Assembly (NCBI GenBank): GCA_963575745.1
Contig: CAUYUJ010008557.1
Coordinates: forward strand, 62,001-126,000
DNA length: 64,000 bases
Direction: 5' to 3'
From: Prorocentrum cordatum
Taxonomy: Eukaryota; Sar; Dinophyceae; Prorocentrales; Prorocentraceae
Shown here: positions 4,475 through 53,858 of the stretch, in pieces
Layout of the letters: every line of letters starts with the position of its first letter
Numbering within the stretch: the first letter of the stretch is position 1
Made by a program: the position numbers and the translations under genes
The notes under the pieces: generated by a model
Seen by the model: the letters and a program-made list of their open reading frames with translations, nothing else
The model's database searches: none
Told to the model about the DNA's origin: nothing

Positions 4475-4477
4475 ATA

Positions 4478-9160: not shown

Positions 9161-9200
<40 letters not shown>

Positions 9201-9246
9201 GTGATGGTGATGGTGATGCCGCTGCCGCTGATAATGCTGATGGTGT
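8871..9246. repeat. (GAT)n trinucleotide repeat region
   Basis: Dense ATG/GAT/GAC trinucleotide repeats, purest at 9090-9210. They give poly-Asp, poly-Met or poly-His ORFs depending on frame and strand, and none should be read as a gene. Confidence 0.95.
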
Positions 9247-9299
9247 TGACGAGGAGCAGGGGCAGGAGGAGGGGGAGGAAGAAATCTGTTGGCAGCCCG

Positions 9300-10140: not shown

Positions 10141-10189
10141 GTCATTATTATCATTGACGACTATAGCTGCTGATGATGCCAGGACAATG

Positions 10190-10650
10190 CCATGATGCCA
10201 CCTGTGACGCCGTTGGTACTTATGGGGGCCGTGGACTTTATGAGACCAGCAGAGCTTGTGGTACTTGTGCGACTTGTGGAACCTGTGCGACCTGCGGGGC
10301 CGGTGCGACCTTCGAGGCCTGTGGGACCTATGAGACCTGTGGGACCTGGGAGACCTGCGGGCCTTGTGGGACTTGTGGGGCCAGTGGGGCCCATGGAACT
10401 TGTGGGGCCTCTGGGGCTTGTGGTGTAGGAGTTGTGGGGCCCTTGCGACCTGTACGGCCTGTAGGGTTTGTTGGGCCTGTGAGACCTGTGGGGCTTGCGA
10501 ACCCTGTAGGACGTGTGGAGCCTATGGGACCTGCGGGGTCTGTAGGACTCGTGGGGCCTGTGGGACCTCTGGTGCTTGTGGCACCTGTGGGACCCGTGGG
10601 ACCTGTGAGACTCGTGGGACCTGTGAAGCCTGTGTAACCTGTGTAACCTG
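10190..10650. repeat. 9-bp tandem repeat with collagen-like translation
   Basis: Degenerate tandem copies of a 9-bp unit close to CTGTGGGAC. The reverse strand reads Gly-Pro-Thr triplets (for example [20 protein letters not shown]) and the forward strand also gives Gly-Pro-Val triplets. A gene is unlikely because both strands are repetitive, with no start context or flanking domain. Confidence 0.85.
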
Positions 10651-10660
10651 TGCGCCCCTT

Positions 10661-11460
10661 GCTCCCGCTCGAGACGTCCTCGCTAGTCACTCACAGACGA
10701 GGCCCCCGTTCGAGACATCCTCGCGATTTGCCAGATTGTGGTGCTCAAGTATGCGTGCTACAGTATCCTGGTGACACGCTGGGATAAACAACGTGTGGTG
10801 AGGCCCCATCGGGAGAGGGCTCCCGCTCGATAATTCCTCGCGGTTCACTCGCAGACGAGGCCTCCGCTCGAGACATCCTCGCGATGTACCCCCTTGCGGT
10901 GCTCAAGTGATACGCCTGCTGCAGTATCCCGATGACGCGCTGGGATTAAAAACATGACGCGGGGGCCCCATAGGGAGAGGGCTCCCGCTCGATATCTCCT
11001 CGCCAATCACTCAAAGACGAGGCCCCCGCTCGAGGAATCCACACGATTCGCCCCCTTGGGGTGCTCAAGTGTTATGCCTGCTATTGTTTCCCGATGGCCT
11101 GCTCGGGTTAGAAACATGAGGCATGGATCCCATAGGGAGGGCCCCCCCCTTGATAATTCCTCGCGAATCACTCGCAGGCGAGGCCCCCGCTCGAGACATG
11201 CTCGCGATTTGCCTCCTTGGGGTGCTCAAGTGATATGATTGGTACAGGATCCCGATGTCTTCATTGCAAGCCACTCACAGACGAGGCTCCCGCCTGAGAT
11301 ATCCTCACGATTGGCCCTCTCGGGGTGCTCAAGGGATATGTTTGCTATGGTATCCCGATGACCCGCTCGGATTAAGAACCTGAGGCGGAGACCCCATACG
11401 GAGTGGTTCCCGCTCTAGACTTTCTCAGGATTCACTTCTACACGATGCTCCAGCTCGAGA
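10661..11460. repeat. Satellite, about 160-bp period, five copies
   Basis: Units start at about 10661, 10819, 10981 and 11141, each with GCTCCCGCTCGA or a close variant. A partial, rearranged copy follows from about 11262 and another start lies at 11406. Shared landmarks are CACTCACAGACGAGGC, GGTGCTCAAGTG and ATCCCGATGACGCGCT. Within a unit the CCCGCTCGAGA block occurs twice about 45 bp apart. Confidence 0.9.
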
Positions 11461-29659: not shown

Positions 29660-29815
29660 CTTGGAGTCATCCTGGGGCTCTCTTGGGGTTCTCTTGGGGC
29701 CCTCTTGGGGCCCTCCTGGAGGTCTTTCTTGGGGCTCTCTTGGGGTCCTCCAAGGGCCTTCTCGGCGCCCTCGCGTGGCTCTTTTGGGGCGTCTTGGGGC
29801 CTTCTTGGATTCTAA
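29660..29815 (+). repeat. 11-bp-phased TCTTGG repeat, plus orientation, cleanest copy
   Basis: Successive 11-bp units such as CTCTTGGGGTT, CTCTTGGGGCC and CTCTTGGGGCC run in register. It ends about 370 bp before the copia-like element; a similar tract begins just after the element, at 44965. Confidence 0.85.
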
Positions 29816-30179
29816 GGCGAGCTGAGGGGCGCAAGTGGCGGAAGCGAGCGCGCGCCCGCGGCCGCGTCGGCCCAAGCGGCCGGCCGCCCAAATATGATTG
29901 CGCCTCGCCGCGAGGCACGCAATCGCTATCGAGACCGAAAGGATCCTCCTATTGCTTAAGATGGCACATCCTCTCCTACTGGGACTGTCGCTACCACGGC
30001 GCAACTGAGCTGGAGGTCGGCTTCGCCTGAGGCGAAACTGCTGGCTGGGCCCCCCATCCCCCTTCAAACTTGGTAGCGGGGCTGGCCTATGGTGGCCGGC
30101 TCTCGCTCTACTCCCCACCGTCCACGGCGCTATCTGGTGGGCTACGGATGCATCGGGGCGCAGTGGGCTTGCGCGGAGG

Positions 30180-31454
30180 AATGTACATGGCCGCGCATCG
30201 TCGCAAGGACACTTGCAGCGATACCTCTGCTCAAGCGGAGGTCTCTCACTTACATCCTACATCCCTGCGCTTCTACACTCCTGAAATCCAACCACCTACT
30301 CCAAGTGGAAATTTCTTCGACGATATAATGCGCAGACTGACGAATGCCCAACGGAAGGCCCGACCGACTACATCCGACTACGACCTGCGAGGCCATTGGA
30401 TCGGCGCTACTATCTTTGGGATCGCCCTGGTCGCTATTGGGCGCGCGGTGGGACACACGCGTGGCGGAGACGACGCACGAGCGTCCGGCTCTCGCTGGGG
30501 CCCAGCCGGTCAAGTACCCTTTCGCGAATGCGTCCGCGAAGTACATGCCTGGATCAACGTGACTACAGGCAATATGACGCCCTCCCAGCAGGCTGCAGCT
30601 CTGCAGCGAGGTTTGCGAGGTCTCGCACGGACTATAGCCATGAGAGCCCATCCAGCAGTTATAATTTTTTGCGTCGACATAGTTGGCCGCCATACTGACG
30701 GCGCCACCTATATCATGTTCCTCGAAGTTCGAGGCTTTAGAAGAGGAGCGCCAACTCAAATCTGGCATTGCTCTCGTTGATTTCCGAGTCCATGCGGGAG
30801 AACGCATCGACCAGGCGTTAGCGCGTTTTGAGATAGCCCGCTATGAAGCTGAAACAGCCGGCTTCAACACCCCCAATTTTCAAATCTTAACAGCGATTAT
30901 AGTCAGAGCTCTTGGAGCGGGGACATCGCGTGCACAGCAACTCCTGCAGCCTCGAAACCACAGCGCGCCGAGAGACCAGCAACAAATTGACGCTCTACTT
31001 GAACGCATGAGGTCATATGCTCACATTGCTGAGAGAACCCCCCGGCAATATTGGTGGCATCTTTAGTCGCGGCCGCCGGGCCGAGACCTTCCACGTGGAG
31101 GCTAACGCAGGGCAACCTGCCAACATCGTCTGGAATGATGATCCACAACCAACTGAGACCACTACACTGTTGGCTCAGAATGGTGGGACGGCCTCGGGGT
31201 CGCAAGACTCCTGGGCCAGGCTTCGGGGACCGCCTGACGCGGCTTCCCCCGCACAAGCCATGGCCCGAATGGGCTCAGCGGGGCAGTCCGCCGAGTCCGA
31301 CTTCGACTCCGGCATTGGTGCCGATGCGTCTTCAGACGAAGAAGCTACAGCCTTTGATTACCCTGATCTGCCTACATACCTCACTGAAGAGCAACAAGCG
31401 CAATGGTTCTTTCTAGGCTCCCAAAACACAAGCGTCGTTGGCGGAGGTGCATGA
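30180..31454 (+). pseudogene. Copia-like gag region
   Basis: The first frame contains VPFRECVREVHAWINVTTG, MTPSQQAAALQRGLRGLART and HTDGATYIMF. It shifts near 30720 to FEALEEERQLKSGIALVDF and FEIARYEAETAGFNTPNFQI, then shifts again near 31030 to PGNIGGIFSRG and FDYPDLPTYLTEEQQAQWFF. The helical, Gln/Leu/Arg-rich sequence fits a retrotransposon capsid domain. The first hairpin copy (31107-31120) encodes AGQPA in this frame. Two frameshifts prevent one protein being made. Confidence 0.5.
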
Positions 31455-32737
31455 GGAAACCAGTCCAAAAGGCAAGGCGTATCGCACGACGATCCCTCAA
31501 AGGAAAATGCAAAGGTCGAAGTGAAGGTAAAGGTAAGCGTCGGCAATTGCATGGTAGAGGCGTACTAGCAGTCTTAGCATCTCTTACTGGACCACAGTCT
31601 GAAGAAATGTTCTGAGGCACTGGCAGAAACCGCAAGCATACATCGGGAAAAGGCAAAGGGCGACGGGGAAACCCGAAGGATGCCAACGGCAAAACTATGG
31701 AGTGCGACATATGCCACAGTGCGCAGCATTTCCGACGCGAATACCTTCAAGGATATGGAATAGGCACGGGTCCGTCAATACATCTGGCTCAAACAGATTC
31801 CGACATAAAGTATGTTGACTGGGAGTCTCTTCTTGCTGACCCTGCCGATAGCTCAGCCACGGTTGTTAATTTCATGGCCGCCAGATATCGCAGCTCCAGC
31901 ATGACCCTCGAGAATTGCGCCGACGAGCTGTTCGAGGAGGTGCTCACTGGCCACAACGACATCGATTTGGCAGAATGGCTGGGCATGCCCATCGCGGGGC
32001 AACCTGCAGATATCGAATATGTCGAGAACTTCCACATGCCCGCTGAAGGATATGCTGACATGGCGGGGGCACCCGCGGATTCAGAAGTTACCATTCCTGC
32101 AACAGACGAGGAAATACAGCTGATGCTTTATCATCGGGTTATTGGAAATCCGACAGATATGGAATTGAGTGACGATGACCCTTTGCGGGGAAACCCGCGA
32201 GGCGCTAGTGATCTATCTGAGCGTATTCAATATGAGCTTGGCCATATTGAAGAATTTCATTATATTTTCTTTGCTTCAGATCGGTCCATGCGCCGCCAGA
32301 ATCGATCGGCTAGCCGCCAGGTCTCGAGGAAGAAGTATCGCGCCGACGATGGGGGCGACGAGTGGGAAGATAGCGATCGCATGATGCGTCGCGGTCGGAT
32401 CTCCAGTCGCTCGCCTGATCGTGCGCGTGCCCGCTCCAGTGGCGCTCGCTCCAGCGGTCTTCAGCGCCCTCATCCTCTTGATGCGGGAACTCCAAAGGCC
32501 CCACCATGGCAGGCTAAAAGGCCTGCCACTCCCCCGAGGATGGAACGCCTGCGGGGGCACGCGCCTCAAGAAGATCAACCGCGAGAAGAATATCCAGAGA
32601 GCGGAAGGCAGCGCCTTGTTGGTTGCGCAGGAGCTGGATTGGCTCGTCAGCGCATACCCCCAGAAAAGATGATCTTATTTGGACCAGGGTTGGACCGGGC
32701 ATCAGATCCGCCACTGGCATTCTCTTCGCAATGTTAA
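31403..32737 (+). pseudogene. Gag C-terminal region with altered CCHC zinc knuckle
   Basis: A basic block (ARRIARRSLKGKCKGRSEGK) is followed by an in-frame TGA at 31613-31615 and a Gly/Lys stretch. The zinc knuckle CDICHSAQHFRREY (31703-31744) keeps C-x2-C-x4-H, but the fourth ligand is Tyr (TAC at 31742-31744). Downstream the frame is open to 32737, with an acidic region and then an Arg/Ser-rich region (MMRRGRISSRSPDRARARSS). Hairpin copies at 31994 and 32063 encode AGQPA and AGAPA. The knuckle normally packages RNA; loss of one ligand should impair it. Confidence 0.55.
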
Positions 32738-33506
32738 ACGAGATGAGTACGGCAAGATCATTCGCTCGAAAAGGACAGGACCGGTTAAAACACAAGGAAA
32801 GATCGCCACGCGCAGCATCAAGAGAGCTTTCATGGAGGAAAGGAAACTCTACAGAAACGTCTGTTGCTCATGTCCCGAGTATGCCGACCACAGGCTCGGC
32901 TGCCCCATGAGGCGCCCATCAAGAAGCCCGAACTTTATAAAGACACAGTGGGTTTGGTCTCATGGTGATGGTCGGGGTCACTGCACCGACCCTAGTACAA
33001 CGCATGTGAGGAGCAGTTGACGGAGAACGACTACGACCACGCCACACCCGATGAGATAGCCCGATCAAACCTCGTATGGAAACACTTGTCACCTCTTCAT
33101 TATTGGATGCAGTTCGATCGCGATTGGCACGCAGGGAAACCTGCTGATCCTAGTCAGAAGAAGAAGACGATGATCAGCAAGAAACTGATGAATATGAAGA
33201 TGATGAGATGGCCGAAGCAGTTGACCCCGCGGACGCGGCCCCTGAAAGGTACGCGTCGGACGACTCCATTGTTGCGGACGCCGCGTGCCAGTCGAACACT
33301 TCGATTGATCCTAGGTATGTTGTTCCTGAAACGATGGACCTCTTCCCTGATAGGCGGATTGCTTACCGCGCTGAAGGTGTAGGCTGGATAAAGACAAGCA
33401 TAGTCGAAATACCCAGCGCCACCAAATGCCTTCTTGCAGGGAAACACAAGACCACTAGTAAGAACCTGGCCCTGAGATCGCCAAGGTCTCCATTTGAACC
33501 CTGGCC
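32738..33506 (+). other. Degraded linker region of the copia-like element
   Basis: Several frames carry short protein-like blocks (KRDEYGKIIRSKRTGPVKTQ at about 32740; CPEYADHRLGCPM at about 32875; LVWKHLSPLHYWMQFDRDWH at about 33075). The hairpin at 33131 encodes AGKPA. An acidic or Lys/Met-rich run (33155-33230) is low complexity. No domain could be assigned. Confidence 0.4.
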
Positions 33507-35098
33507 GTGGTTCCGTGCGATATGGGCCAGGGGCGCCGGCAGGGGCCGCGGCTAAGGCAGCTCCCGAGCCGAAGCCAGAGGCGCCTATCGATGCCCCACC
33601 ATCTTCGGAGTCATCAAGTCCATCGCTTGGCCCTGATCAGTTCAGACCTGAAAAGAAGAAAAGGAAGAGACCAGGTGATCCTAGCCCTGGAGACAGTAAA
33701 CAGTAGCGATCTGCGGGGCAAACTGCTGACCGACGTCGATCCAGAGGACCAGCAGTGGCTGCCGTTGCAGCTGCATTTCAAGGCACCAGTACTTCTGCTC
33801 CGAAGGAACCTGTGCCACGTCGGGGCCCTACACCAGGTCGGACGCACAGGACAGGCTGGGTGCCCTTGCTGGAAGGATCAACAAGGGATGAGTTCTGCAG
33901 GGCAACCTGCCTTCACTTTGGAGATGCCAGTGGAATGCCGAGAGTGCTGGTGCAAGTTACGCACGTCCAATCGCACGCAGACCAACCCAGCATATCATCC
34001 TCACATTGATGACGGGTCTGATCGATGCATGGCGGTGCAGTGCGACCTCGTGGACACCGCCATTCATCGTGACCAGGACGCACATGCGCGCCTGACGGTG
34101 CGCAACATTATGCGTAAACGCTCGGCACGCACGCAGGATTCTGAGAAGGAATATTTGATTGGGATCTTCGAAGCAGAAAGTATCAGAAAGCCAAGGTTCA
34201 GCTACGAGGAGCAGCGTCAATGTTCAGAGTGGCTCACGACTGCCCTTCGCCACGATTTTTTTATAGAGGTCGCCTTTCTGACAGATTCCTACGGGAAGTA
34301 CCATCCTATGATGAGTTTGATGGATGGGCTGATCTGTCAGAGTTGCTCGACCGTTGGCCAGCTGAAGGACATGAGAATCATCATCGCAAGCACCTGGGGA
34401 CTGCGCGCCAGAAGCTCAATAAACAACACTGGGCGTACCAGGCTTTAGCTGTGCTGGACCTGCTTGGCATGGTGGATCGCGCTGGGATGCAGAAAAACAG
34501 GCTACAGCTCAAGAAGTGCAAGTACACCTCCGAGTCGCACGACACGTACTTCATCCGTCCAAGCAATGGACATAGCAGCCCTGGGATAAAGTGCCCTGAA
34601 CCATTGTGTATGAAAATTACGGACTTGACCGCTCCACGTGCACCTTTTTATTGCATTCATGGTACTCAGTGGGACACTATCCCCAACCTACCAAGCGTCG
34701 GATTGTCTTGCCGCGCCGACGACTCCAGCAAGAAGAGGGGCAGACAGTTTGCACATGGTTGCCCATGCCTTCCTGGTGATAGTCGAATCCAGTCCGGCCT
34801 GCGCGTTGATTCCGAGGTGTTGGTCATGGTTAGTTTTAAGAACCTGCTTCGGGACAACATGCCGATTTGGCACTCAGCAAACGACATCATAATGTCAGCA
34901 GGCCGTGGCGGCATAATTCCTCCGACCCACATCGTTCTGTTGATGGTTATCTTGCCGAATGAATATTGTTGCAGGTGCAATCGTGTGGGACAAATATGGG
35001 TCAACCCCATGTACCTTTGGGGCACCAACCAGCAGTGTCCGTGCAGTGATGTTTCTGTCAAGAAATGTACGAATTTCGGAACGACGCGTCATCGTTGA
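33507..35098 (+). pseudogene. Tpt1/KptA-like RNA 2'-phosphotransferase domain within the retroelement
   Basis: The first frame, ending in QCSEWLTTALRHD, carries the L-R-H motif of Tpt1/KptA (Arg 34248-34250, His 34251-34253). After a frameshift near 34255 the next frame reads FDGWADLSELLD, like the family D-G-W-x-x-x-x-x-L-L, then YFIRPSNGHSSPGI, matching I-R-x-x-x-G-H-S (Arg 34556-34558), CIHGTQW, SGLRVDSEVLVMVSF (Arg 34802-34804) and GGIIPPTHI. These positions correspond to the known Arg-His-Arg-Arg tetrad. Tpt1 removes an internal RNA 2'-phosphate with NAD+. Near 34740-34770 the neighbouring frame (SLHMV) fits better, so a second indel is likely. Confidence 0.55.
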
Positions 35099-35811
35099 TG
35101 GATTGGTTTATTCCAAAGACCCCGTACAACTTTAAGTGCCCCGAACCACCACCTATTCAGGGAGTCAAGTTCTCAACAGTGCTCATGATGCAGGACGCGT
35201 TTCAAGCGGGGGCACCTGCAGGGGGATCTGATGGATCACGGATGCAAGCTCAAACTGCGGATGCGACAGGAATTACTTCAAGTGGCATCACGCCCTCCGA
35301 CACGCTGTACGCCAACGACCCTTGGCGTGCTCAGGTACAGCAGCTGCCAGTGCCCGCAGGGCAACCTGCTTCATTCGCTCCAATAAGCAGAGCCACAACT
35401 CCATTTGGTACTCCACAGAGTGCTGGGAGCACCAGCAGCCTACAGGCGAGGCTCCAACGCATTCGAATGGACCCGCAGCTCTGTCAGGCTTTACAGGCGA
35501 CATCGCCGTTTGCATCACCGCGTCCGCATGCAGGGCAACCTGCTTTTCCTGACCACCATGCTGTACAGAGAACCGAGAATTTGGTTGGTCAGCAAGAATG
35601 GATGCACCGGCAGATGCGCGAAGCCGCTCAGAGTACGCGTAGGGATGGCATTGACCTCCCTAGCGCCAACTCGACGCCGCCTCGGGAGTATGTTCCGGAC
35701 TCAAATCCATCACCGGACAACCCCGATCGGTTTGGATACGTGCCAGCATTTTTCAGTCATCCGACATGCAATTCAACGGCTGCCGACCGCCCCTTTAGAA
35801 GCACCAATTGA
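35065..35811 (+). pseudogene. Low-complexity linker ORF with AGxPA hairpins
   Basis: An open frame of 248 codons rich in Ala, Gln, Ser and Pro, for example SRMQAQTADATGITSSGITP. Hairpins at 35206, 35356 and 35530 encode AGAPA, AGQPA and AGQPA in this frame. No domain is recognised; it is probably a flexible linker between the Tpt1-like and RING-like segments. Confidence 0.45.
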
Positions 35812-35995
35812 CTACCCACGTTATCCTGATTATCACGCTCAGGTAAGTGGCACTCCCTGAGTAGGGGCACAGCCCGGAAACCCGTATGTACGGGCGACGG
35901 CCGACGACTTCTACCAGTCTCAGCTGACGCGCGGCTCAGGGCATGCATCAGGTGTGCCAGGCGAGGTCCCTCACTATTGATATCTGGCCGCCCCC

Positions 35996-37051
35996 ATGGA
36001 CCAAGATGTGCAGCAACAGGCGCCAGGTCTAGTAGTGCCATCGACCATGGGAGGGCTACGCCCTGAGATCTTAGCCATCCATGAGGCGCAGCAGGCCAAC
36101 ATGGCGATGCAGTCTGCCCGCCAGCGTCGCAACCAGGAGCGTGAGGCTAACAGAATGTTGAGCCGTGCGGGGCAACCTGCTATTTCCAATGCAGCAGGGA
36201 CACCTGCGATCAGTCCAGCCGCGCTCGCAGCAATGCAGCTACCGGTGGTTTTACCGATTCGATACGAAGCTGGTGAGACCACTCTGGAGCGCCAGACGCG
36301 TATCAGGCCATCGGCAACACCGCCCATCATCAGCGACGGCGACTTCAACAAGTGCGCAATAGGCCTGGACCATTTCATGAGCCACGATAAAGTCTGGAGG
36401 CTCCAGTGCGGCCACAGATTCTACGCACAGTGCTGGGATCGAGTTGCACGTGCTCATGTGGATAGACAGTTGGCTGGGAACATGGAAGGTTCCGCAACTG
36501 AGGCCCCCTGCGCCATATGCAGGGGTGTTGGCTTAATCACAGCCGAGTTCCATTACGCCCTCGCTGGAGATCAGGAGTCACTCGACCGTCATGAAGATAT
36601 ACTCCGAGGGGCAAACGAATTCAGGGACATCCGTGCAGAGCTCAACCGCATTACGGCGATGATGACGAACACAGCGGTTGTCTCAATAACGACACCGGCG
36701 GGGCAACCTGCATCATCAGCCAACGCTGGGCTAGTAACGGAGGCCACCACACCTGCAGGGACACCTGCTGTAGACGCGCCTATGCCACTGATAGCAGAGA
36801 CCGCTAACAATGCAGGGGCACCTGCTGCGTCAGCACCACCTTCGGTGCCGGTCAATGACACGCGGTTGAGGCGTATGGAGAGGGCTACTGATAGGGGCGT
36901 TCAGTGGCTTCAGTCCCCACGCGCGCACATGCCATATGGGCGAGACATTCGTCCGCGCAATCAGCGTGGGACAGAGAGCCAAGTGAACGTGCGTAGTGGC
37001 AACAGTGAGATATCTGAACGCGGCATGCTGCATACTGTCTGTTTATGGTAA
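35996..37051 (+). pseudogene. RING-H2-like finger domain ORF within the retroelement
   Basis: Open for 351 codons. Around residues 120-175 it reads CAIGLDHFM, then LQCGHRFYAQCW, then APCAICRGVG. This follows the RING pattern C-x2-C ... C-x-H-x2-H-x2-C ... C-x2-C with two ligands changed: the second Cys is Gly (36362-36364) and the usual His of CGHxFH is Tyr (36422-36424). RING fingers commonly act as ubiquitin ligases. Five hairpins (36167, 36194, 36698, 36755, 36812) encode AG(Q/T/A)PA in frame on both sides of the finger. Downstream is a charged tail. Confidence 0.5.
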
Positions 37052-37290
37052 ATACATATGGCCAAATGGGCATGCGCGCAGACGAGGATACGTTTCTGAC
37101 CCTGCCCACTACCTCTGCATCACGCCCATACACATATGACGAATATCCTACAGCCTGGATCTTTGAGAATAATCCTATTACGGAAGAAGAGGCTCGTGGA
37201 TATATGAACGTCTTTACATCTTTGTCTCGGAACGACTGGGTGTTGGAGCAGAGGCGCCGCAAAAGGCATGCACGGTACGACATTGTCTGA
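37045..37290 (+). pseudogene. Unassigned segment before the protease
   Basis: An 81-codon frame with ordinary composition (YDEYPTAWIFENNPITEEEA, YMNVFTSLSRNDWVLEQRRR). It overlaps the end of the RING-like ORF in another frame, so one frameshift would fuse them. Function unknown. Confidence 0.35.
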
Positions 37291-37339
37291 AGTGCCAGGA
37301 CTATTTGATGAACGCCACGAATTGGCCTCGGCAGCTAAC

Positions 37340-37850
37340 AGTAGAACTATGATGAATGGTATGCTGGCTATTCTCTTGGTTATTGGCAGCAAAGTTTAAC
37401 GATTGGTTTAAAGACGGCACAGACCTTCGAACAGGCATCTCTCTCCCGCGGACACGCCATCAAGAAGCTGAACCTGACGAAGAGGCTCTACGTGTCTGGG
37501 GTGGGACATTGCGCCACGATATGCGACGAGCCCCTGCACTGCAAGATTGCGTGCAAAGAAAGGGGAGATCCGGCGGGGGCACCTGCTGCGCCGAGACTTG
37601 ACACTTACTCAGCACATGTAGCTGAGGGTTCTGGGGGGGGCCTCCCTGCTCTCCTGGGTCTGAGGAGCATGTCCAACATGGGGGCCATCCTGATCCTGGA
37701 GCAGGGGCACGAGAAGATGATCATCCCTGGCGCTGAGATGTACAAGATTATATTTTGAAAGGGTGCCAGAGTGTTTGATTTGATGAAGACTTCTTCTGGA
37801 CATCTGGCACTCAAGGTCGACGAGTACGGGGCTGCTACTGAAGATAAAGG
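37340..37850 (+). pseudogene. Retropepsin-like aspartic protease remnant
   Basis: One frame gives LLVIGSKV, where retropepsins have a hydrophobic-DTGS/A motif (the Asp-Thr is read as Val-Ile), followed after a shift by IGLKTAQTFEQASLSRGH, KKLNLTKRLYVSGVG and LPALLGLRSMSNMGAILILE, then MIIPG. The Leu-Pro-x-Leu-x-Gly block is the usual second hydrophobic part of these proteases. The hairpin at 37573 encodes AGAPA between the two halves. The catalytic Asp is lost and the frame is broken. The assignment rests on pattern and on position upstream of integrase. Confidence 0.4.
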
Positions 37851-38429
37851 GTAACGGTCGTTTACTATTACGGCCAATCCTTAATGCGAAGATGATCCGT
37901 TGCTCGTCAAAGAGGCATCTGATCCTGAGCCAGCCGCGGGGACACCTGCTATGAGTGACCTTCATACATGTATGATGTCACAGGATACCAATGCCATCAG
38001 CTCGTCCATCAACGAGGAGACCTTCACGTTCACGATCCAGTCTCTGTGAATAACACCATGAGGACTTGGCATCGCAGGAGTACGTGCTTCGGAAGCAACC
38101 CGACCTCGGCCGACAATGACTTCACAATGCGCAACTTGCAAGCGAAGATATATCAGGCCATCTACGAGGAGGGCACGAAGTGGACGCCGCCCGATGCACG
38201 TGCAGAGACACCTGCGGAAGGAGATGATGCCGCTGGGAAGTTTGATATATTTACTTCGAGCAGCGGCTCTGCAGCGCAGCATGGCACGGGCATTTGGACG
38301 CCCCCATCGCCAAACGAGTGACGGGGGCAGGCGCATGCCACGGCCACTCGCGCTTGCTCGGACAGGCCGAACACTCAGGTACTGTCAGCAAGCGCGGGAA
38401 AACGTGCATTATTTTTCCAAGCGCCGGCT

Positions 38430-39206
38430 GTGCGCCCCAGGGGCAGTGGCCAGCCCGGCTGCGCGGCTGCCACGGATGGCAGTGGACCCGGCTGTGTGGC
38501 CGCCGCAGAAAAAGAAGGGTTATCGCATCATTATCGCTCTCGCGCATTTGTTATTGAAGATATACGGACAGCTTGCGCTGAACTCCGATGCCGCGGCTAC
38601 ATGTGTGACCGCATTACACATACAGAGGTCATGACCTCCACTGGTACACAATATGTTGGTGCTCTACTCTCGGGTGATAACCAACTGCTGTGGGCGGCAA
38701 CACCTGCTGATTGGTGTGTGAGACTGCCTGGCAAGCGGGCAGGACCACATTATCAGCGCGTCCAAATTTTGATGACCAAAGCTCGGGCTCTACGCAGGAC
38801 TATTGTGCTTGTGGGACCACCAGGACACTTCTGGAAGCAAGGTCGTATACGAGACGCGATTGAGGATCTTGATTTACATGTCATGCGTATGCGGTTCTGC
38901 CACTTCGGCTTCAAGTACGACCGTGCTAATAGGTTGCCCAGCGGATCATATCTGCAAGTGGCAACTACCTGCACGCGCATCCCGACCAATCTATGGCGAT
39001 GCACGTGCAAAACAGCAGGGAAACCTGCACAACCTACTGAGCATGTCCTGGATTGGCATGGACAAGGATCTCAGAAGGCCGAATGGCGCAACAAGACGCT
39101 AGCGATCATGACCGCAAGGTTGATCGATCAGATGGACTTACACAAGACGCAGAGAAATCACACAAGTGCTGTACATCGTAGTATCCACACTCAAGTGGAT
39201 AAGTGA
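38430..39206 (+). pseudogene. Methyltransferase-like (Rossmann) domain 1, degenerate
   Basis: Open for 258 codons. TIVLVGPPGHFWKQGRIRDA occupies the place of a PPC-type motif. MRMRFCHFGFKYDRANRLPS then YLQVATTCTRIPTNLWRCTC resembles the C-x-x-G-L ... K-x-T ... C pattern seen in methylase-like domains of dinoflagellate retroelements. The hairpin at 39015 encodes AGKPA. Capture of cytosine methyltransferases by dinoflagellate retrotransposons is established in Symbiodinium; membership of that family is inference here. Confidence 0.35.
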
Positions 39207-39830
39207 ACTCGAACTTACGTTCAGTCGCCTAAGAATGGCCCTGAGGGGGACCATGTTGTCAGACGGGTAACGATGAACCTAGACGACAACACGAGCATAC
39301 AAGACATCAAGATTCAGGACCAGCCTATCGGGTACAACTACAACGCGCCATCACCAAATGGTGTTACCAACATCCGTACTCGACTGTACTGGGAGCAGCC
39401 TGAACCGGCTCTCCTCGGACACGGGAGCTCACGTCCACGCTCAAGGCGAGTGGCGATCATCGATGACCATCGCCCCCCCTCCCTCTTCGATTGAGCGCGG
39501 CCGCGTGCTCCTCTCTATTCCCGAATTTCCGATACTCAGATTACCTGGGACCTAACAAGGGACAGCACTACCAACAGAAAGCAGACAAAGAAGCAGGCAT
39601 CAAACCACGCAAGATACCAGAGATAGTCGAAGAAGGCAACGACGATTGTGGAGATGACCTGAAAGGACTCGGATGTAGCGCGTACTACACCGTACGTACC
39701 TCTTGACTCCGACTCGGAAGGTGACGATGAAGAGGGAAATTTCATCACACTACTTGCGGGGCAACTCGCTGAATCCTACGCAGATGTAATCTCCATAATC
39801 CCCACTTTGTGATATGAGCGTCACAAGAAG

Positions 39831-40583
39831 ATGGATGCGCTGGAATTGTGTGGAGGAAAGGGAGGCATCTCTCAGCTAGTATTCAGCCGAGGTCTGTCCT
39901 CAGGGGGAAACCTCGACAAACGTACCTTTGTTGACCTTGGTAACAAGGAAGTTCAAGATGCAGTGGTGCACTATCTGGACGTTTGTTTTGTCAAAGCTGC
40001 CATACTACAAACCAACTGCAGAACAATTGGGTTGCCCTCCTATTTGAATGCGCAGGTTAACTACGATACTTGGTGCGAACATCATAGGAAGGATCTGCCA
40101 CATGCCAAGTTCTGTGGGCAGGTGGCTATACGTCAGAACGATCCTCGACTGTTCTACTTACGAGAACAAGCAGTGGGTACTTGGGTGGGTCAAATACTAC
40201 CATGGACTACGTTGGCCAAAAGCAAGGACACTTGCAAGGTGAACATGGATCAATGCACTACTGGCCAACGTGACTCCCATGGGGTACTGATACGAAAGCC
40301 GATTGACATTCTGGCCAGCCATAGCCTTTTACTCTCCCTTTTTGAACGAAAACGATGTACTGGTCATCATCAACATGCGTCGGCATGTAACAGGGAACTG
40401 CCCATGGCTGCGCAATATACTCCAAAGATGCCGTCGCTTTTTGTCCATGCTGTTCAGATTGCACACGATCTCTTCCAGGTAGCTCGTGATCCTTTTCCAT
40501 GGTCACCGTTGTTCGTCCACCGTGCTGGCCACCAACGTGAGGGGATGCGACTTGCACGATCCGAGTCTCCCTCGGCACCCTGA
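39831..40583 (+). pseudogene. Methyltransferase-like (Rossmann) domain 2, degenerate
   Basis: Begins MDALELCGGKGGISQLVFSR, like motif I of SAM-dependent cytosine methylases (hydrophobic-E-L-C-G-G-x-G). AAILQTNCRTIGLPSYLN stands where the PPC motif should be, and RLFYLREQAVGTWVGQI where the E-N-P/V motif should be. MDQCTTGQRDSHGVLIRKP follows. The catalytic Pro-Cys and Glu-Asn are not conserved, so it is either a non-catalytic derivative typical of the family or decayed. It is a second, more complete copy of the fold after domain 1. Confidence 0.4.
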
Positions 40584-40679
40584 TGGCTCGATTGCCAGAC
40601 CACCCTCGTGGGGGCTCGGATGCCCCGCAAGCTTGGATCGTGTTAACATGCATTCTCCCTCACATGACAGGAATGCGAC

Positions 40680-40800
40680 ACACTGCAGGTGATGCGATAA
40701 GGACGACTACCATTGGGAATGTCCGAGTTGTAAGAAGAACTAAGGTAATAACAAGCCTGGACACGTACTAACACTTGGCAAATGCAAGTTTGCCAAGCCC
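40680..40800 (+). other. Zinc-ribbon-like segment with in-frame stop
   Basis: One frame reads CDKDDYHWECPSCKKN, a TAA, then PGHVLTLGKCKF, giving a C...C-x2-C ... H ... C pattern. This could be a small zinc-binding motif linking the methylase-like and integrase parts. Confidence 0.25.
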
Positions 40801-40983
40801 TGGTACCACCGCGTCCTGCCGAATTGGCAGCAGGACCTGCATCACCAGCTCCTGCTGAGCCAGCAGCACCACCACCCGAGGCGCCAGCCGCATCACCACT
40901 CACGCGGCTAAGAGCACCAAGACCCGGCTCAAGAGCTGGACCTACAGCGGGTGCGAACAGTCACGACATTACTGTAGGCAGAC

Positions 40984-42215
40984 ATGCTGCTGAATCTGCT
41001 GCAGGGCAACCTGCCTCGAGTGGAGCTGGTAGTTCGGATGGCCATCTCCGACTACCACAGGTTAGAGTCAGACGTGGTCGACAGGAAGGTGGAGAAGCGC
41101 CTTCTCCACCACCAGCCGGTAACCCTGCTGCACGACCACGACTACCAGACTGGTCAGGGTTCGACGTGCAAATTAGTCTACACATTTGAAGAAACCTGCG
41201 TGGTAACGCGCAAGCTGCGGAAGTTGCACTTGCGCTGGTCCCATGCGAAAGAGCCTAAGATGAGACTCATCTTCAGCAAGATCGGACTGGACAATGTCAG
41301 AATCAACCTGATCAAAGCTGTCTGCGACACATGTCGGGAGTGCAGAGCTTGGGGCGAGCCTGGGCATGCTGTTATGCCCCCCCCCGCCGCACTGCCTGGC
41401 AAATGTAATGAAGAAGTGAAATGTGTTCTGATGTTCTACAGACAAGAACACCACATCCTCCATATCATCGATCGCTGTATACGATATGCTACTGGGATTG
41501 AGATATACCAGACAAGACGATGACAAGTATCATGGATGCATATCATCAGTGCTGGATGCAATTTGGACCTGCAAAGGTACTCTACTCCGACGGAGAGGGT
41601 GCCCTTAACCACGACACTGCGGAAGCAGTCCTCAAGGCAAAAGGCACAGAACTTAGGACACGTGCGCGTGGACAGCACGCCACGACGATCGAAGCCAGAA
41701 ATGGGATACTGCGCCATGTACTTCACGTCATGGAAGCTGAACTCAACAGGTTGGACATACCTCTTCTGTTCACACGGCTACTGCACGAAGTTTTGTTCGC
41801 CGCCAACGCTTTCACCTTCTACGACGAGGTGTCTCCATGGAACGCTCTGTTTGGACGGCAACCATCAATACTTTCTGACCTACCTGCCCTGGACCACGAG
41901 CAGCCGATGGAAACGTCGGACCATTCTCGTGTTCAGACGATACGCAGGGCATGTATTGAAATTATCACACAGGCCACAGCAGTAGCTAAGACCAATCGTG
42001 CCTCACGCACTACAGCGGTTATTACTGGCCAGCACTATTACGATGAAGGAGGCTTGGTCGATTATCATCGCCCCACGACCACGAAGGATGACTGGGGAGG
42101 CTGGAATGGCCCGTTGCCAGTTGTAAAGACTGATCCCGAAAGGGGTCAAGTTATCATCCGAGTGGGCAATCGAGATGTTCAGGTACAATATGGCGATGCA
42201 AGGCAGTTATTATAG
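40984..42215 (+). pseudogene. Ty1/copia integrase
   Basis: The zinc-binding part reads KLHLRWSHAKEP, then CDTCRECRAW (H-x4-H ... C-x2-C). The core starts KCVLMFYRQEHHILHIIDRC, where Val at 41425-41427 stands where the first catalytic Asp is expected. Around 41500-41515 two extra bases in an ATATA context move the frame to the ORF beginning at 41520. That ORF carries VLYSDGEGAL (second Asp) and TTIEARNGILRH (Glu 34 residues later), then the copia-typical SPWNALFGRQPS. A GKP/Y-type tail with DDWGGWNGPLPVVKTDPERG follows. Loss of the first Asp plus the frameshift means no activity. Confidence 0.7.
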
Positions 42216-42805
42216 ATATTAGATATTGAAGCACTGATAGCCCAGAGATTGGCTCCGACAACACGTTTCTACGCACAGGTGTAGACATTCGTGGCCCGTT
42301 TATCAGTTGGGAGACCTGCTCTGACCTTTGGCTATATTCCGACCAAGAAAGGGGCGCTTCAGATGACGAGTGCAAGCCGTCCATTCCCTAAGGTACATTT
42401 GGCGCTAGAGTACCTTACCACAAACTTTTTCCGCATTGAAAATGTAGTTTCGGTCGGGCTAGCCAAGAGTATTCATAAACTACCTCCGGTTACTTATGCT
42501 GGCAGCTGCACATTGGTCCACTATGGCAACGACGTGGATCCAGGATTTCATTATTATGAAGCAGAAGGTACTGCACTGAATATACACGATAGAATTGGAT
42601 CAGCACATTCGAGAATTATTCCATACTGAAGTGCACTTAACCCCAAGCAGGTTTTGATCAGGACATGACAAGATTTGAGGACTTGGCGGCTACACCGACG
42701 CCAGAGGGAACCACAAGAGAAGCCTCAGAAGCCGAACTGCCACGTGATGATTGACGGCTCTCTACGATCTACGAAGAATCAGAGGCCGATCTCGAGTCAC
42801 ATGTC
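42216..42805 (+). pseudogene. Post-integrase linker of the copia-like element
   Basis: The 42291-42629 frame contains GRPALTFGYIPTKKGALQMT and CTLVHYGNDVDPGFHYYEAE, a region I associate with this element family between integrase and RT. Stops flank it at about 42213 and 42627. No enzymatic motif. Confidence 0.4.
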
Positions 42806-44648
42806 ATGGAATTGCAGCATGCAGAACTGCAGGAGGAAAAGGAACTGCTGGAGGCAACTCCACCAGAGGACCTCTTTACCATGCCGACACAGATGTTTCC
42901 AGATCAAAGTGTGCTGATCATTGTAGCTGATGAACAGCGGGGACACCTGCCAAAGCGGGGGCGCACTCACGACTCCGACACCGAGGAGACGTACTACGCC
43001 CCAATGTGTGTCATGGTCGAAGACGAAGACGGCGGACTGGACTCAGACGAAAATGGTCAATATGTCGAACTCTGCTTCGCGGCAGAAATGTCAAAGGTAG
43101 TCCTGTCCGAACGACAACATATGATACTAGATGCCGACCGCGTGACCACTATGCGAGTATACGTAATCGCCGTTGCAAGGCGAGCTGCGGTCGTCAAGGA
43201 AGACGACCTCATCGCCAAAGCTGACATCCAGGCGAATCTTGATAATGCATCGAAGGCCGTCTACGCTGAACTCAAGACATGGCTCGACAACAAGAGTTTT
43301 ACTATGAAAGATATAGCTAAAGCGTCGAGCATCATGACTTCGAGATACGTGTGCAAATGGAAGTTCGCGAAGAAAAGAAAAGGGCGAGGTGGAACGCACC
43401 GTAAGACTACGCCTGGTACTCCGAGGTTTCATGGGCCTTGAAGCCTTCGACGTAGAAACCTGTCCGGGAACAGCGCGACGGTCAAGCCAGAGGCTACTCG
43501 CCAGCGAGGCAGCGTGCAAGAAGCAATGGATCATTGCTTCCCTTGACATCAACATGGCCTTCCTGAAGGGGTTGGCCGATCAGGAACTCGCTGAAGCTAC
43601 TAGTGAAAGGAAACGTCTGGCGCGTTTTACTCCGCCGCCTGGATCGGCCAAAGTGCCCCGAAATCTCCCAGGATTCGAACACTACGATGAGTCAAAGCAC
43701 CACCTGCAGTGCTTGAAACCAGGCACAGGCACCAAATACGCACCACGGGCTTTCTCTCTAAAGCTCAGAAGGGCCACCAGAGGTTTTGGTTTCCGACCCG
43801 CGCCCTACGACGAGGAGTCCGGGACGAGCAACAATTTGCTCACGGCCGAGCACGTTGATGATATCAATATGGCCGGTACTGAGGTCACCATTGACAAGTC
43901 TGCCAAGTGCGTTGAAGACACCTTTGGTGAGTGTAAACTCAACAGGCACACGTGCACCAACTATGCTGTGGTATACGCCAAGGATGAGGGCGGTAATGTC
44001 ACTTTGGGCCTAGATGAATATATCAAACAGCTCCGTCCTATACAGCATTCTGAACTTACCGGCGCCGGCGCTGACGCTCAGGCATCCAAGATGGTTGCAG
44101 ACGTGTTCGTCAGCCTCAGGGGCGCGCTGGCGCATGCATTGATGACCCGGGTGTGGTTGATGGTCTTTGTTGTATCTCTACAGCGCGCCCGAGAACCGAC
44201 CAACATCCAAGTGCGACGACTGAGCGCGATCACCAGGAAGCTACAGGCCTGCCCAAAGAAGATCGTCTACCAGGCGATGACTCCTACGGGCGAGGTCGAC
44301 CTGCATGGCGACTCAGGATACCGACGCCTGAGTGGAGACGCCGACGACGACGTCGAAGGCCATGGTATTCGCGGGGCAAACCTGCTACGACGTGGAAACA
44401 CGTCATCCGGTAAACTTGTCGTTCACATGATCGATGCGTACTGCAAGTCTCTCCGTTTGCATGTCCGCTCGAGGTATTCAGCAGAGACACTAGCAGCAGC
44501 CCATAATTGGGAGGACTGTTATCCCACGACTGTGACTCTGCACGAGCTCCACGCAGGGCCGCCCACGCCCACTCAGCTAAAATATATACTTGAGTTGGGT
44601 GGCCTGAGCATCAAGGTCACCTTGGCCATCGATGCTGAGTCTGTTTAA
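42806..44648 (+). pseudogene. Ty1/copia reverse transcriptase-RNase H
   Basis: The 5' frame ends with YAELKTWLDNKSFTMKDIAK and SRYVCKWKFAKK, the start of the copia RT domain. A one-base shift in the A-rich run at about 43370-43385 moves to the frame from 43389, which reads VRLRLVLRGFM, then SLDINMAFLKG (motif A, Asp at 43545-43547), TKYAPRAFSLKLRRATRGFG, and HVDDINMAG (YVDD variant, 43851-43862). RNase H begins at VDLHGDSGYRRLSGD. The Asp-Asp pair of the palm is kept, making RT the best-preserved module. The hairpin at 42937 is read out of the AGxPA frame. Confidence 0.75.
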
Positions 44649-44698
44649 AGTCCTTGTCAAGCAGAGACTCGAAGAAGCCGACTGACTGTGCCCTTTAA

Positions 44699-44785
44699 GG
44701 ACACATCAGTTGGATACGACAGATGATGGAACGTGGAATCGCGCACAGCATCCAGTGGTGCGACGCCCGCCAGACATCCAGTTCT
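44699..44785 (+). pseudogene. RNase H C-terminal remnant
   Basis: In another frame after the stop at 44646-44648 the sequence continues GHISWIRQMMERGIAHSIQW, then CDARQ, the conserved end of copia RNase H. Similarity fades at about 44785, which sets the right limit of recognisable element sequence. Confidence 0.45.
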
Positions 44786-44964
44786 GACGCCGCCTGAGGA
44801 GTACTTCATGTACAAAACTGTACGAGCATGGCAACTTGCGAGCGGGCCCACCTTCCTTCAGGCCCGCCCCTTTTTTTGTCCTTGTGTCTATTAGCTGCTG
44901 TGCCTGCTGCACAGGGGCGACGGGCCCGCGCTTCGTCTCCCTCCCCCCCCGACTCTAAAGCGAG

Positions 44965-45480
44965 CTGATTTTGGAGGGTCTTGGAGCTCTCTTGGGGCTC
45001 TTGGGAGTGGTCTGGGAGGCCTTTTTGCGGCCGTCTTAGGCCGCACTGATCGAACAAATGGGGGGTTCTAGTTCGGATCGCCCCCATCGGAGGCTCAAAA
45101 TGCCCTCTTGGGGCCCTCTTGGCCCGCTCTTGGTGCGCTCTTGGGCGCACTTGGGGCCGTCTTGGGGTCATCATAGACCCCTCTTGGAGCTATATCGGGC
45201 CGTCTTGGGGTCATATTGAGGCCTCAAGAGCTCATCGGAGGCGAAAAAGCGAGAAGTCAAGCACACACGGATGTTCACTAGGTGTTCGAAGGATTTTGGC
45301 GTCTTGATGGGGTCCTTGGAGGCCTCGGTGGCCATTTCAAACCGTCCTGGGTCCGTCTGGAGGCCTCTTGGACGTGTGTCGGAGGCTATCTTGACCCATC
45401 TACCGCAACCTTGGACCATTTGGGAGTCCATCTTGCGCTCCCTGAAACCCTCTTGGAGCCATCTTGGACCAACACGGACC
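44965..45480 (+). repeat. 11-bp-phased TCTTGG repeat, plus orientation
   Basis: In-register units at about 45115-45170 are CTCTTGGGGCC, CTCTTGGCCCG, CTCTTGGTGCG and CTCTTGGGCGC. Looser copies extend to 45480 and reappear at about 45715-45790. It starts about 180 bp after the end of the copia-like element. Confidence 0.8.
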
Positions 45481-52473: not shown

Positions 52474-53858
52474 TGCTGAGGCAGGCTGATGCTGAGGCTG
52501 GGGCAGGCTGAGGCTGAGGCTGAGGCTGAAGGCAGACTGAAACTGAGGCTGAGGCAGAGGCAGGCTGAGGCTGAGGCTGACGCAGGCTGATGCTGAGGCA
52601 GGCTGAGGCTGAGGCTGAGGCTGATGCAGGCTGAGGCTGCGGCAGGCTGAGGCTGAGCCCGAGGCTGAAGGCAGACTGAGGCTGAGGCTGAAGCAGGCTG
52701 AGGCTGAGGCTGAGGCTGAGGCTGAGGCTGAGGCAGGCCAGGCTGAGGCTGAGGCTGAGGCAGGCTGAGGCAGGCTAGTTCCCAGAACTCCATTCCCAGG
52801 CCACATTTTGAATGCTGAGCAGGCTGATGCTGAGCTGAGGCTGGCTGAGGCTGAGGCAGGCTGAGGCTGAGCCGAGGCTGAAGGCAGACTGAGGCTGAGC
52901 TGAGGCTGAGGCTGAGGCTGAGGCAGGCTGAGGCTGAGGCTGAAGCAGGCTGAGGCTGATGGCTGAGGCAGGCTGAGGCTGAGGCTGAGGCAGGCTGAGG
53001 CTGAGGCTGAGGCAGGCTCAGGCTGAGGCTGAGGCTGAGGCTGAGGCCGAGGCTGCAGGCAGACTCAGGCTGAGGCTGAAGCAGGCTGAGGCCTGAGGCT
53101 GAGGTGAGGCTGAGGCTGTGGCTGAGGCTGAGGCTGAGGCAGGCTGAGGCAGGCTGAGGCTGATGCAGGCTGAGGCTGAGGCTGAGCTGAGGCAGGATGA
53201 GGCTGAGGCTGAGGCTGAGGCTGAGGCTGAGGCTGAGGCAGGCTGAGGCTGAGGCAGGCTGAGGCTGAGGCCGAGGCTGAAGGCAGACTGAGGCTGAGGC
53301 TGAAGCAGGCTGAGGCTGAGGCTGAGGCAGGCTGAGGCTGAGGCTGAGCAGGCTGATGCTGAGGCAGGCTGAGGCTGAGGCTGAGCAGGCTGAGGCTGAG
53401 GCTGAGGCTGCAGGCGGAGGCCGAGACAGGCTGAGGCTGAGGCTGAGGCTGAGGCCGAGGCTGAAGGCAGACTGAGGCTGAGGCTGAAGCAGACTGAGGC
53501 TGAGGCTGAGGCAGGCTGAGGCTGAGGCTGAGGCAGGCTGATGCTGAGGCAGGCTGAGGCTGAGGCTGAGGCTGATGCAGGCTGAGGCTGAGGCAGGCTG
53601 AGGCTGAGGCCGAGGCCGACGGCAGACTGAGGCAGGCTGAAGCAGGCTGAGGCTGAGGCAGAGGCAGGCTGAGGCTGAGGCTGAGGCAGGCTGATGCTGA
53701 GGCAGGCTGAGGCTGAGGCTGAGGCTGATGCGGGCTGAGGCTGAGGCAGGCTGAGGCTGAGGCCGAGGCTGAAGGCAGACTGAGGCTGAGGCTGAAGCAG
53801 GCTGAGGCTGAGGCTGAGGCAGGCTGAGGCTGAGGCAGGCTGAGGCTGAGGCTGTGAC
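52474..53858. repeat. GAGGCT hexanucleotide tract, about 1.4 kb
   Basis: Near-continuous GAGGCT repeats with regular GAGGCAGGCT and GAAGGCAGACT interruptions, which suggests a higher-order unit. The minus-strand 499-codon ORF across it is simple repeat translation. Confidence 0.95.

What the first reader, a model, noticed from the sequence alone, without database searches (positions are those of the whole stretch)
31107..42950. A dispersed 14-bp hairpin with a GNNA loop occurs about 20 times within one retroelement
The motif GC(A/G)GG-GNNA-CC(T/C)GC recurs at 20 positions between 31107 and 42950, and I noticed none elsewhere in the window. The stem is fixed and the four-base loop is always G-N-N-A (GCAA, GGCA, GACA, GAAA). 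GCAA and GAAA are classical GNRA RNA tetraloops. Such a short, sequence-constrained, multi-copy element spread through coding sequence resembles palindromic mobile elements that live inside genes, but I know of no description of it in dinoflagellates.
Basis: partly seen in the sequence, partly recalled or inferred. Interest (0 to 1): 0.87.

Follow-up and report, generated by a model that had tools for sequence, protein, structure and literature searches.

The report
Retrotransposon RNA studded with small hairpins
A copia-type jumping gene in a very large, probably algal genome carries dozens of near-identical 14-letter RNA hairpins along its length; they stay foldable while their letters change, so they probably serve as repeated docking sites for a protein, perhaps the one that packages the element's RNA.

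Summary
In detail: 19 (not 20) exact copies of GCRGGGNNACCYGC, all on the + strand, all inside one degenerate copia-type LTR element (about 29811-44967); 0.13 expected. Genome-wide there are 61,787 hits against 6,571 for the reversed pattern. Of the 100 hits listed, 91 lie in six such elements and 9 are isolated, against about 8.4 expected as background.

The conserved unit is not one sequence. It is a sense-strand hairpin with a 5-bp stem and a GNNA loop. The window element has 35, against 1-9 for each other loop class. A nearly intact second family scores 42, against 2.6 after synonymous-codon shuffling. Stem length spikes at 5 bp. Near-perfect stems with GNNA loops favour G·U over A·C, 92 to 28. 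Hairpins at matching codons in three families show paired changes.

Copies mostly share the hairpins at the same sites, so a mobile palindrome is not supported. I read them as selected RNA structures, most likely repeated binding sites for the element's own Gag (dispersed packaging-like signals). The structure is well supported; the function is inferred.

The parts
29811..44967 (+). degenerate copia-type LTR retroelement; the 3' LTR was not found in the window
   Evidence: aligns with genome copy c2c from its 5' LTR (c2c 868) to the start of its 3' LTR (c2c 16140); RVT_2 domain
30203..30216 (+). GNNA hairpin, other stem: GCAAG-GACA-CTTGC, near the 5' end
   Evidence: c2b has GCAAG-GGCA-CTTGC in the matching part
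31107..31120 (+). canonical hairpin GCAGG-GCAA-CCTGC
   Evidence: exact in c2b and c2c
31994..32007 (+). canonical hairpin GCGGG-GCAA-CCTGC
   Evidence: matches f2a 3708 with G-C in place of G·U
32063..32076 (+). canonical hairpin GCGGG-GGCA-CCCGC
   Evidence: not exact in c2a, c2b or c2c
32185..32198 (+). canonical hairpin GCGGG-GAAA-CCCGC, read in another codon phase (RGNP)
33131..33144 (+). canonical hairpin GCAGG-GAAA-CCTGC
33897..33910 (+). canonical hairpin GCAGG-GCAA-CCTGC
35206..35219 (+). canonical hairpin GCGGG-GGCA-CCTGC
   Evidence: exact in 15 of 31 other copies
35356..35369 (+). canonical hairpin GCAGG-GCAA-CCTGC
   Evidence: exact in 20 of 31 other copies
35530..35543 (+). canonical hairpin GCAGG-GCAA-CCTGC
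   Evidence: exact in 16 of 31 other copies
36167..36180 (+). canonical hairpin GCGGG-GCAA-CCTGC
   Evidence: exact in 20 of 31 other copies
36194..36207 (+). canonical hairpin GCAGG-GACA-CCTGC
   Evidence: exact in 19 of 31 other copies
36698..36711 (+). canonical hairpin GCGGG-GCAA-CCTGC; absent in c2b
   Evidence: exact in 22 of 31 other copies
36755..36768 (+). canonical hairpin GCAGG-GACA-CCTGC; absent in c2a, c2b and c2c
   Evidence: exact in 19 of 31 other copies
36812..36825 (+). canonical hairpin GCAGG-GGCA-CCTGC
   Evidence: exact in 20 of 31 other copies
37573..37586 (+). canonical hairpin GCGGG-GGCA-CCTGC
   Evidence: exact in 17 of 31 other copies
37936..37949 (+). canonical hairpin GCGGG-GACA-CCTGC; two hairpins stand here in some copies
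   Evidence: exact in 15 of 31 other copies
39015..39028 (+). canonical hairpin GCAGG-GAAA-CCTGC; absent in f2a and f2b
39756..39769 (+). near-canonical hairpin GCGGG-GCAA-CTCGC; f2a has GCGGG-GCAA-CCCGC
39935..39948 (+). GNNA hairpin, other stem: CCTTG-GTAA-CAAGG
40222..40235 (+). GNNA hairpin GCAAG-GACA-CTTGC, shared with f2a (GCAAG-GTCA-CTTGC)
41001..41014 (+). canonical hairpin GCAGG-GCAA-CCTGC; absent in f2a and f2b
41616..41629 (+). GNNA hairpin, other stem: ACTGC-GGAA-GCAGT
   Evidence: not kept in f2a
41905..41918 (+). GNNA hairpin with a U·G pair: CGATG-GAAA-CGTCG (c2b has CGACG-GAAA-CGTCG)
42849..42862 (+). GNNA hairpin, other stem: TGGAG-GCAA-CTCCA
   Evidence: not kept in f2a
42937..42950 (+). 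canonical hairpin GCGGG-GACA-CCTGC in another codon phase; f2a GCAAG-GCCA-CTTGC, f3 GCAGG-GACA-CTTGC
44390..44403 (+). GNNA hairpin ACGTG-GAAA-CACGT; c2a GCGTG-GAAA-CACGC, f2a GCGTG-GCCA-CACGC, f3 GCGTG-GACA-CACGC
34319..34903 (+). RNA 2'-phosphotransferase (Tpt1/KptA) domain
   Evidence: Pfam PTS_2-RNA, E 4.8e-15
36347..36520 (+). RING-type zinc finger
   Evidence: Pfam zf-RING_2, E 4.4e-4, below cut-off here; above cut-off in f2a
43374..43589 (+). copia-type reverse transcriptase, partial
   Evidence: Pfam RVT_2, E 1.4e-8

Best explanation
The repeats are RNA hairpins of a copia-type LTR retroelement: a 5-bp stem closed mostly by G-C, with a GNNA loop, 14 nt in all, always on the sense (genomic/messenger RNA) strand. 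Selection on the RNA keeps them although they lie mostly in coding sequence; where the protein is disordered they are mostly read as Ala-Gly-X-Pro-Ala. Shown by sequence: strand, size, loop, codon restriction and paired changes across three families. Inferred: they are repeated recognition sites for one RNA-binding protein, most likely the element's own Gag, whose ORF carries an arginine-rich stretch and a zinc-knuckle-like motif. The array would mark full-length RNA for packaging or help it condense into particles, like the dispersed packaging signals of single-stranded RNA viruses.
For: 19 canonical hairpins, all sense. GNNA stands out among 16 loop classes in the window element, 35 against 1-9. 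Exact stem length spikes at 5 bp only: window 19 against 1.1 per other class, f2a 35 against 1.9. Synonymous-codon shuffles of f2a ORFs: 42 observed (one counted twice, overlapping segments) against a mean of 2.56 and a maximum of 8 in 200; without the canonical motif 17 against 2.23. In f2a ORF 3896-10813 all 19 AGxPA peptides use the motif codons. Near-perfect GNNA stems: G·U 92 against A·C 28 over seven copies, other loops 212 against 265. Paired changes at 42937 and 44390 across f1, f2 and f3. f2a stems kept at matching f1 codons: 12 of 28 GNNA, 0 of 35 with other loops; in f3 4 of 13 against 0 of 18. Two hairpins stand at the end of the f2a ORF and just past it. f2a has a weak CCHC hit, 18.5 bits, cut-off 20.8, and an arginine-rich stretch before it.
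Against: No binding, packaging or structure-probing data exist here. In local RNA folding only 12 of 19 (window) and 11 of 27 (f2a) canonical hairpins reach a pair probability above 0.5; antisense 6 of 19 and 9 of 27. 16 of 28 f2a GNNA stems are not kept in the f1 copy used, and 2 of the 12 kept lost the GNNA loop. Within f1, non-canonical GNNA stems are kept little better than others: 12 of 31 against 25 of 90. f3 has only 8 perfect GNNA stems. By nucleotide alignment, f2 motif positions are no better conserved than flanks (24 of 40). The recurrence of nearly the same stem sequence exceeds what structure alone needs. Copies of a family share ancestry, so copy counts are not independent.
Confidence: 0.5

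Rival explanations
1. The hairpins are selected RNA structures, but for another partner: a host or element factor for export, stability, translation or silencing, or an RNA-processing step linked to the element's own Tpt1/KptA domain.
For: All structural evidence applies equally. KptA is present in f1 and f2, and relatives of the element are found in transcriptome-derived protein sets.
Against: Nothing here ties the hairpins to KptA or to a host factor. A repeated array over the whole RNA is more than a single regulatory site needs (inference).
Confidence: 0.32
2. The hairpins are copies of a short mobile palindrome, or spread by template switching between hairpins.
For: Near-identical stem sequence at many sites. 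Gains or losses by small indels (36755, 36698, 39015, 41001). Two hairpins in place of one at 37936 in c2b.
Against: One orientation only. Sites shared across copies. No excess of isolated hits in the listed stretch. Many other stems with the same loop, which copying would not make.
Confidence: 0.07
3. The motif is a repeated peptide, Ala-Gly-X-Pro-Ala, selected at protein level (a linker or protease site), and the DNA pattern is a by-product.
For: 17 of 19 canonical hairpins are read as AGxPA by my judgement of the frames (and the open frame at 37936). Transcript-derived relatives keep AGxPA at the same places, for example 9 of 10 at 35206.
Against: Motif codons used by 19 of 19 AGxPA in the long f2a ORF, 23 of 25 over four ORF segments. 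The same nucleotide hairpin read in other phases at 32185, 42937 and f2a 15405. Other stems that encode other peptides. The two hairpins at the end of the f2a ORF.
Confidence: 0.04
4. The motif acts as double-stranded DNA, a palindromic protein site or cruciform.
For: Inverted-repeat symmetry; paired changes would also keep a DNA palindrome.
Against: Strict strand asymmetry of the loop, half-site sequence that changes freely while pairing is kept, and G·U tolerated over A·C.
Confidence: 0.07

Closest known systems
Dispersed packaging signals of single-stranded RNA viruses (MS2 and others; PMC6281560, passages read)
   Same: Many short stem-loops along the genomic RNA, overlapping coding sequence, that share a loop motif and vary in stem sequence.
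   Different: Here an LTR retroelement; loop and size are far more uniform (5 bp + GNNA); no coat-protein binding has been shown.
Packaging and dimerisation structures of Ty1/Ty3 and retroviruses (PMC4974528, passages read; PMC5454406, listing and abstract start only)
   Same: RNA structures in an LTR retroelement's genomic RNA that Gag may bind.
   Different: As described there for Ty1, the cis-acting structures are concentrated at the 5' end; here dozens are spread over about 16 kb.
Phage lambda/P22 boxB hairpins (recalled, no call)
   Same: About 15-nt hairpin with a 5-bp stem and a loop folded like GNRA, bound by an arginine-rich peptide.
   Different: boxB has a five-base loop and one or two sites in leader RNA; no binding protein is known here.
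Rickettsia palindromic elements (recalled; listing only)
   Same: Hairpin-forming repeats within reading frames.
   Different: Those are longer mobile inserts, as recalled; these are 14 nt, of one orientation and shared at fixed sites.
Amoebophrya introner elements (PMC7789003, passages read)
   Same: Hairpin-forming repeats in a dinoflagellate relative.
   Different: Those are introns with 8-20-nt inverted repeats at their ends; these hairpins are exonic and complete in 14 nt.

Membership tests
Copia-type LTR retrotransposon | copia-type reverse transcriptase (RVT_2) | tested here: met
   E 1.4e-8 in the window, 2.5e-11 in f2a
Copia-type LTR retrotransposon | paired LTRs | tested here: met
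   f2a 289 nt, 98.96%; c2c 86.6%; not found as a pair in the window copy
Copia-type LTR retrotransposon | integrase upstream of reverse transcriptase | tested here: inconclusive
   no Pfam hit for the presumed integrase ORFs; order inferred by eye
Selected RNA hairpin | more hairpins than codon usage and protein sequence give | tested here: met
   42 against 2.56, f2a ORFs, 200 synonymous shuffles
Selected RNA hairpin | changes on both sides that keep pairing | tested here: met
   42937 and 44390; pairs changed on both sides still pair in 16 of 25 GNNA and 16 of 44 other cases
Selected RNA hairpin | stable fold in context | tested here: inconclusive
   12 of 19 and 11 of 27 above 0.5
Dispersed packaging signals | bound by the element's coat/Gag protein and needed for packaging | not testable with these tools
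   needs binding and packaging assays
GNRA tetraloop | third loop base a purine | tested here: not met
   third loop base C in 34 of 42 (f2a), 7 of 20 (window), 7 of 8 (f3); GNNA in general
Palindromic mobile element | both orientations and presence/absence at orthologous sites | tested here: not met
   one orientation in the window; sites shared in 31 copies, with few absences

The most novel reading that the evidence does not exclude
A lineage of LTR retrotransposons has turned its whole 16-kb RNA into an array of dozens of uniform GNNA hairpins that its Gag reads as a multi-site packaging code, written through the coding sequence by codon choice and, in disordered protein regions, by AGxPA peptide insertions.
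Probability: 0.35. Interest if true: 0.88.

Novelty: new variant of a known kind. Interest (0 to 1): 0.74.

Why it matters
Multi-site packaging signals are debated in RNA viruses because their motifs are loose. Here the unit is sharp (5 bp, GNNA, one strand), repeated dozens of times per RNA, and present in very many copies of several families in one genome, so covariation and gain/loss can be measured at scale. If the packaging reading is right, it brings the dispersed-signal principle to LTR retrotransposons and gives a simple, directly testable RNA-protein pair. It also shows RNA structure shaping protein sequence, with AGxPA peptides as the visible trace.

Tried and rejected
Rejected: mobile palindrome, peptide-only repeat and DNA palindrome (see rivals). 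Kissing-loop dimerisation was set aside because most loops (GCAA, GCCA, GACA, GTCA) are not self-complementary (reasoning only). GNRA tetraloop in the strict sense fails on the third loop base. A link to introners was considered after PMC7789003 and dropped, since the hairpins are complete within 14 nt and lie in open frames. Relatives of the RING ORF and the RT in viral contigs: none. Literature: seven of my ten searches touched this question; 'GNNA tetraloop' gave 0 papers, and the dinoflagellate/hairpin/retrotransposon searches listed no description of it. I claim no more than that.

Not done: genome-wide counts of G·U against A·C forms and of other loops. The genome search did not answer these requests.
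Full report
WHAT IS THERE. The pattern GCRGGGNNACCYGC occurs 19 times in the window, all on the + strand between 31107 and 42950; shuffles give 0.13 on average. The hits lie in one element of about 15 kb (29811-44967) with a copia-type reverse transcriptase, a Tpt1/KptA RNA 2'-phosphotransferase and a RING-like finger. The element is degenerate: its reading frames are broken in many places, and alignment with copy c2c ends where that copy's 3' LTR begins.

GENOME. The window lies in a genome of 4.13 Gb in 21,875 contigs. The pattern has 61,787 hits there; read backwards it has 6,571. Only the first 100 places are listed. I counted them: 91 lie in six element copies and 9 are isolated, against about 8.4 expected from the control density over the stretch covered. 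So in that sample the excess sits in these elements. A search with the RING ORF found 114 scored matches from 13,852 first-look candidates; one with the RT ORF found 96 from 10,692, many with an open frame of about 2200 aa. These are lower bounds of large families.

THREE FAMILIES. Family f1 holds the window copy, three copies on contig C2 (c2a, c2b, c2c; 74-76% identical to it), g2636 and others. Family f2 (f2a, f2b) is younger: LTRs of 289 nt at 98.96% identity and an open frame of 2306 aa. f3 (contig C1, 1213500-1230000) is 28-70% identical to f2a in protein, stretch by stretch. f2a carries 27 canonical motifs; the two canonical f3 motifs sit at codons that match f2a hairpins 9188 and 9224.

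THE UNIT IS A HAIRPIN, NOT A SEQUENCE. On the + strand of the window element, perfect 5-bp tetraloop stems number 40 (30071-44770), of which 20 have a G..A loop; without the canonical motif it is 8 of 28. With one G·U allowed the numbers are 35 for G..A and 1-9 for each other class. Exact stem length for G..A loops follows the other classes at 2, 3 and 4 bp and then jumps at 5: window 19 against 1.1 per other class, f2a 35 against 1.9, f3 8 against 1.6; f3 also shows 8 at 4 bp against 2.7. Loops of 3 and 5-8 bases show no such excess of G..A (f2a loop 5 has 5 of 29). The closing pair is G-C in 17 of 20, 32 of 42 and 7 of 8. The third loop base is A or C, seldom T, not G.

NOT CODON USAGE OR PEPTIDE. 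Shuffling synonymous codons in the f2a ORF segments leaves 2.56 GNNA hairpins on average (maximum 8 of 200) against 42 observed; one hairpin is counted twice because two segments overlap. Without the canonical motif it is 17 against 2.23. Other loops also exceed the shuffles, 42 against 27.3, though far less. Dinucleotide-type resampling gives 41 against 0.95 for f2a and 8 against 1.23 for f3. In the long f2a ORF all 19 Ala-Gly-X-Pro-Ala peptides use the motif codons; over four ORF segments it is 23 of 25. In the window 17 of 19 hairpins are read as AGxPA by my judgement of frames, while 32185 and 42937 are in another phase. In f2a, hairpins at 11079, 12660, 15387, 15405 and 16839 use other phases, and 17408 and 17427 stand at the end of the last ORF and just past it.

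SENSE RNA. Among stems with a single imperfect pair, GNNA loops have G·U 92 times and A·C 28 times over seven copies, more G·U in each of the seven. Other loop classes have 212 and 265. The rest of the window has 8 and 4 (GNNA), 132 and 108 (other). G·U in the sense RNA is A·C in the antisense, so this points to the sense RNA. Copies of one family are not independent; the family-level counts are 15:3 (window), 13:6 (f2a) and 11:3 (f3).

COVARIATION. At 42937 the forms are GCGGG-GACA-CCTGC (window, c2b), GCGGG-GAGA-CCCGC (c2c), GCGGG-GGCA-CTTGC (c2a), GCAAG-GCCA-CTTGC (f2a, f2b) and GCAGG-GACA-CTTGC (f3); g2636 has a broken pair. At 44390 they are ACGTG-GAAA-CACGT (window, g2636), GCGTG-GAAA-CACGC (c2a), GCGTG-GCCA-CACGC (f2a, f2b) and GCGTG-GACA-CACGC (f3); c2c is broken and c2b does not cover it. 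For f2a stems mapped by codon to the first available f1 copy in a fixed order, all five pairs are kept in 12 of 28 GNNA cases and 0 of 35 others (Fisher p 1.1e-5); in f3 4 of 13 and 0 of 18 (p 0.023). Two of the 12 kept stems no longer have a GNNA loop. Pairs changed on both sides still pair in 16 of 25 and 16 of 44. A nucleotide-based comparison of copies gave 21 of 48 against 7 of 56 between f1 and f2, but within f1 only 12 of 31 non-canonical GNNA stems against 25 of 90 others.

CONSERVATION AND GAIN/LOSS. Between the window and c2a-c, fixed motif positions agree in 502 of 548 cases, flanks in 4739 of 6581; third codon positions 84% against 62%. Against f2a/f2b the few alignable motif positions show no advantage (24 of 40). 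In 31 other copies of the central region (two identical loci and one repeated locus were dropped), 183 of 310 site-copies are exact and 82 differ at one constrained position, which looks like decay after insertion. Absences: 36755 in c2a-c, 36698 in c2b, 39015 and 41001 in f2a/f2b. Proteins from a 'Pyramimonas sp. AAC' set in EukProt are the only relatives found in three protein searches (2, 5 and 14 hits; the first scored only the 7998 best candidates). They keep AGxPA at 35206 in 9 of 10, at 35356 in 9 of 11 and at 35530 in 4 of 8 that cover the place. The name may reflect contamination; I could not test it.

HOW IT LIKELY WORKS. Shown: selection keeps sense-strand 14-nt GNNA hairpins along the RNA. 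Inferred: one protein reads them. The f2a Gag-like ORF has an arginine-rich stretch and a weak CCHC hit, 18.5 bits against a cut-off of 20.8, so Gag is the nearest candidate, and a multi-site packaging signal the nearest known mechanism. PMC6281560 (passages) describes dispersed stem-loops with a shared loop motif in MS2 and suggests such assembly may extend to Gag-like proteins. PMC4974528 (passages) describes the Ty1 5' end as highly structured. Folding of the canonical hairpins in context is only partly favoured (12 of 19, 11 of 27), perhaps because arms of neighbouring hairpins can pair with each other.

VERDICT. The mobile-palindrome reading is not supported; an RNA-hairpin array is. Host identity, protein partner and function remain open.

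Noticed in passing
34319-34903: A Tpt1/KptA RNA 2'-phosphotransferase domain lies inside a copia-type retroelement, also in f2a; a role in RNA repair or processing is possible.
   Followed up: partly
36347-36520: A RING-type finger in the same element (above Pfam cut-off in f2a).
   Followed up: partly
L138-L139 and rows: A large young family (f2) with many copies that keep an open frame of about 2200 aa; LTRs of f2a are 98.96% identical.
   Followed up: partly
37936-37949 and c2b, c2a, c2c: Two hairpins about 24 nt apart in some copies, one in the window, which looks like deletion between hairpins.
   Followed up: partly
proteins P0001-P0021: All relatives found by protein search are labelled Pyramimonas sp. 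AAC in EukProt; contamination or a related element there is untested. P0017 and P0018 change frame relative to the others.
   Followed up: no
52475-53854: Long GCTGAG-type tandem array overlapping a 499-aa open frame on the - strand.
   Followed up: no
55222-56814: 90-nt tandem repeat, 18 copies, 91% alike.
   Followed up: no
3717-3964 and 6821-7131: About 32-nt tandem repeats with a TCTAACATGGGC-like core at two places.
   Followed up: no
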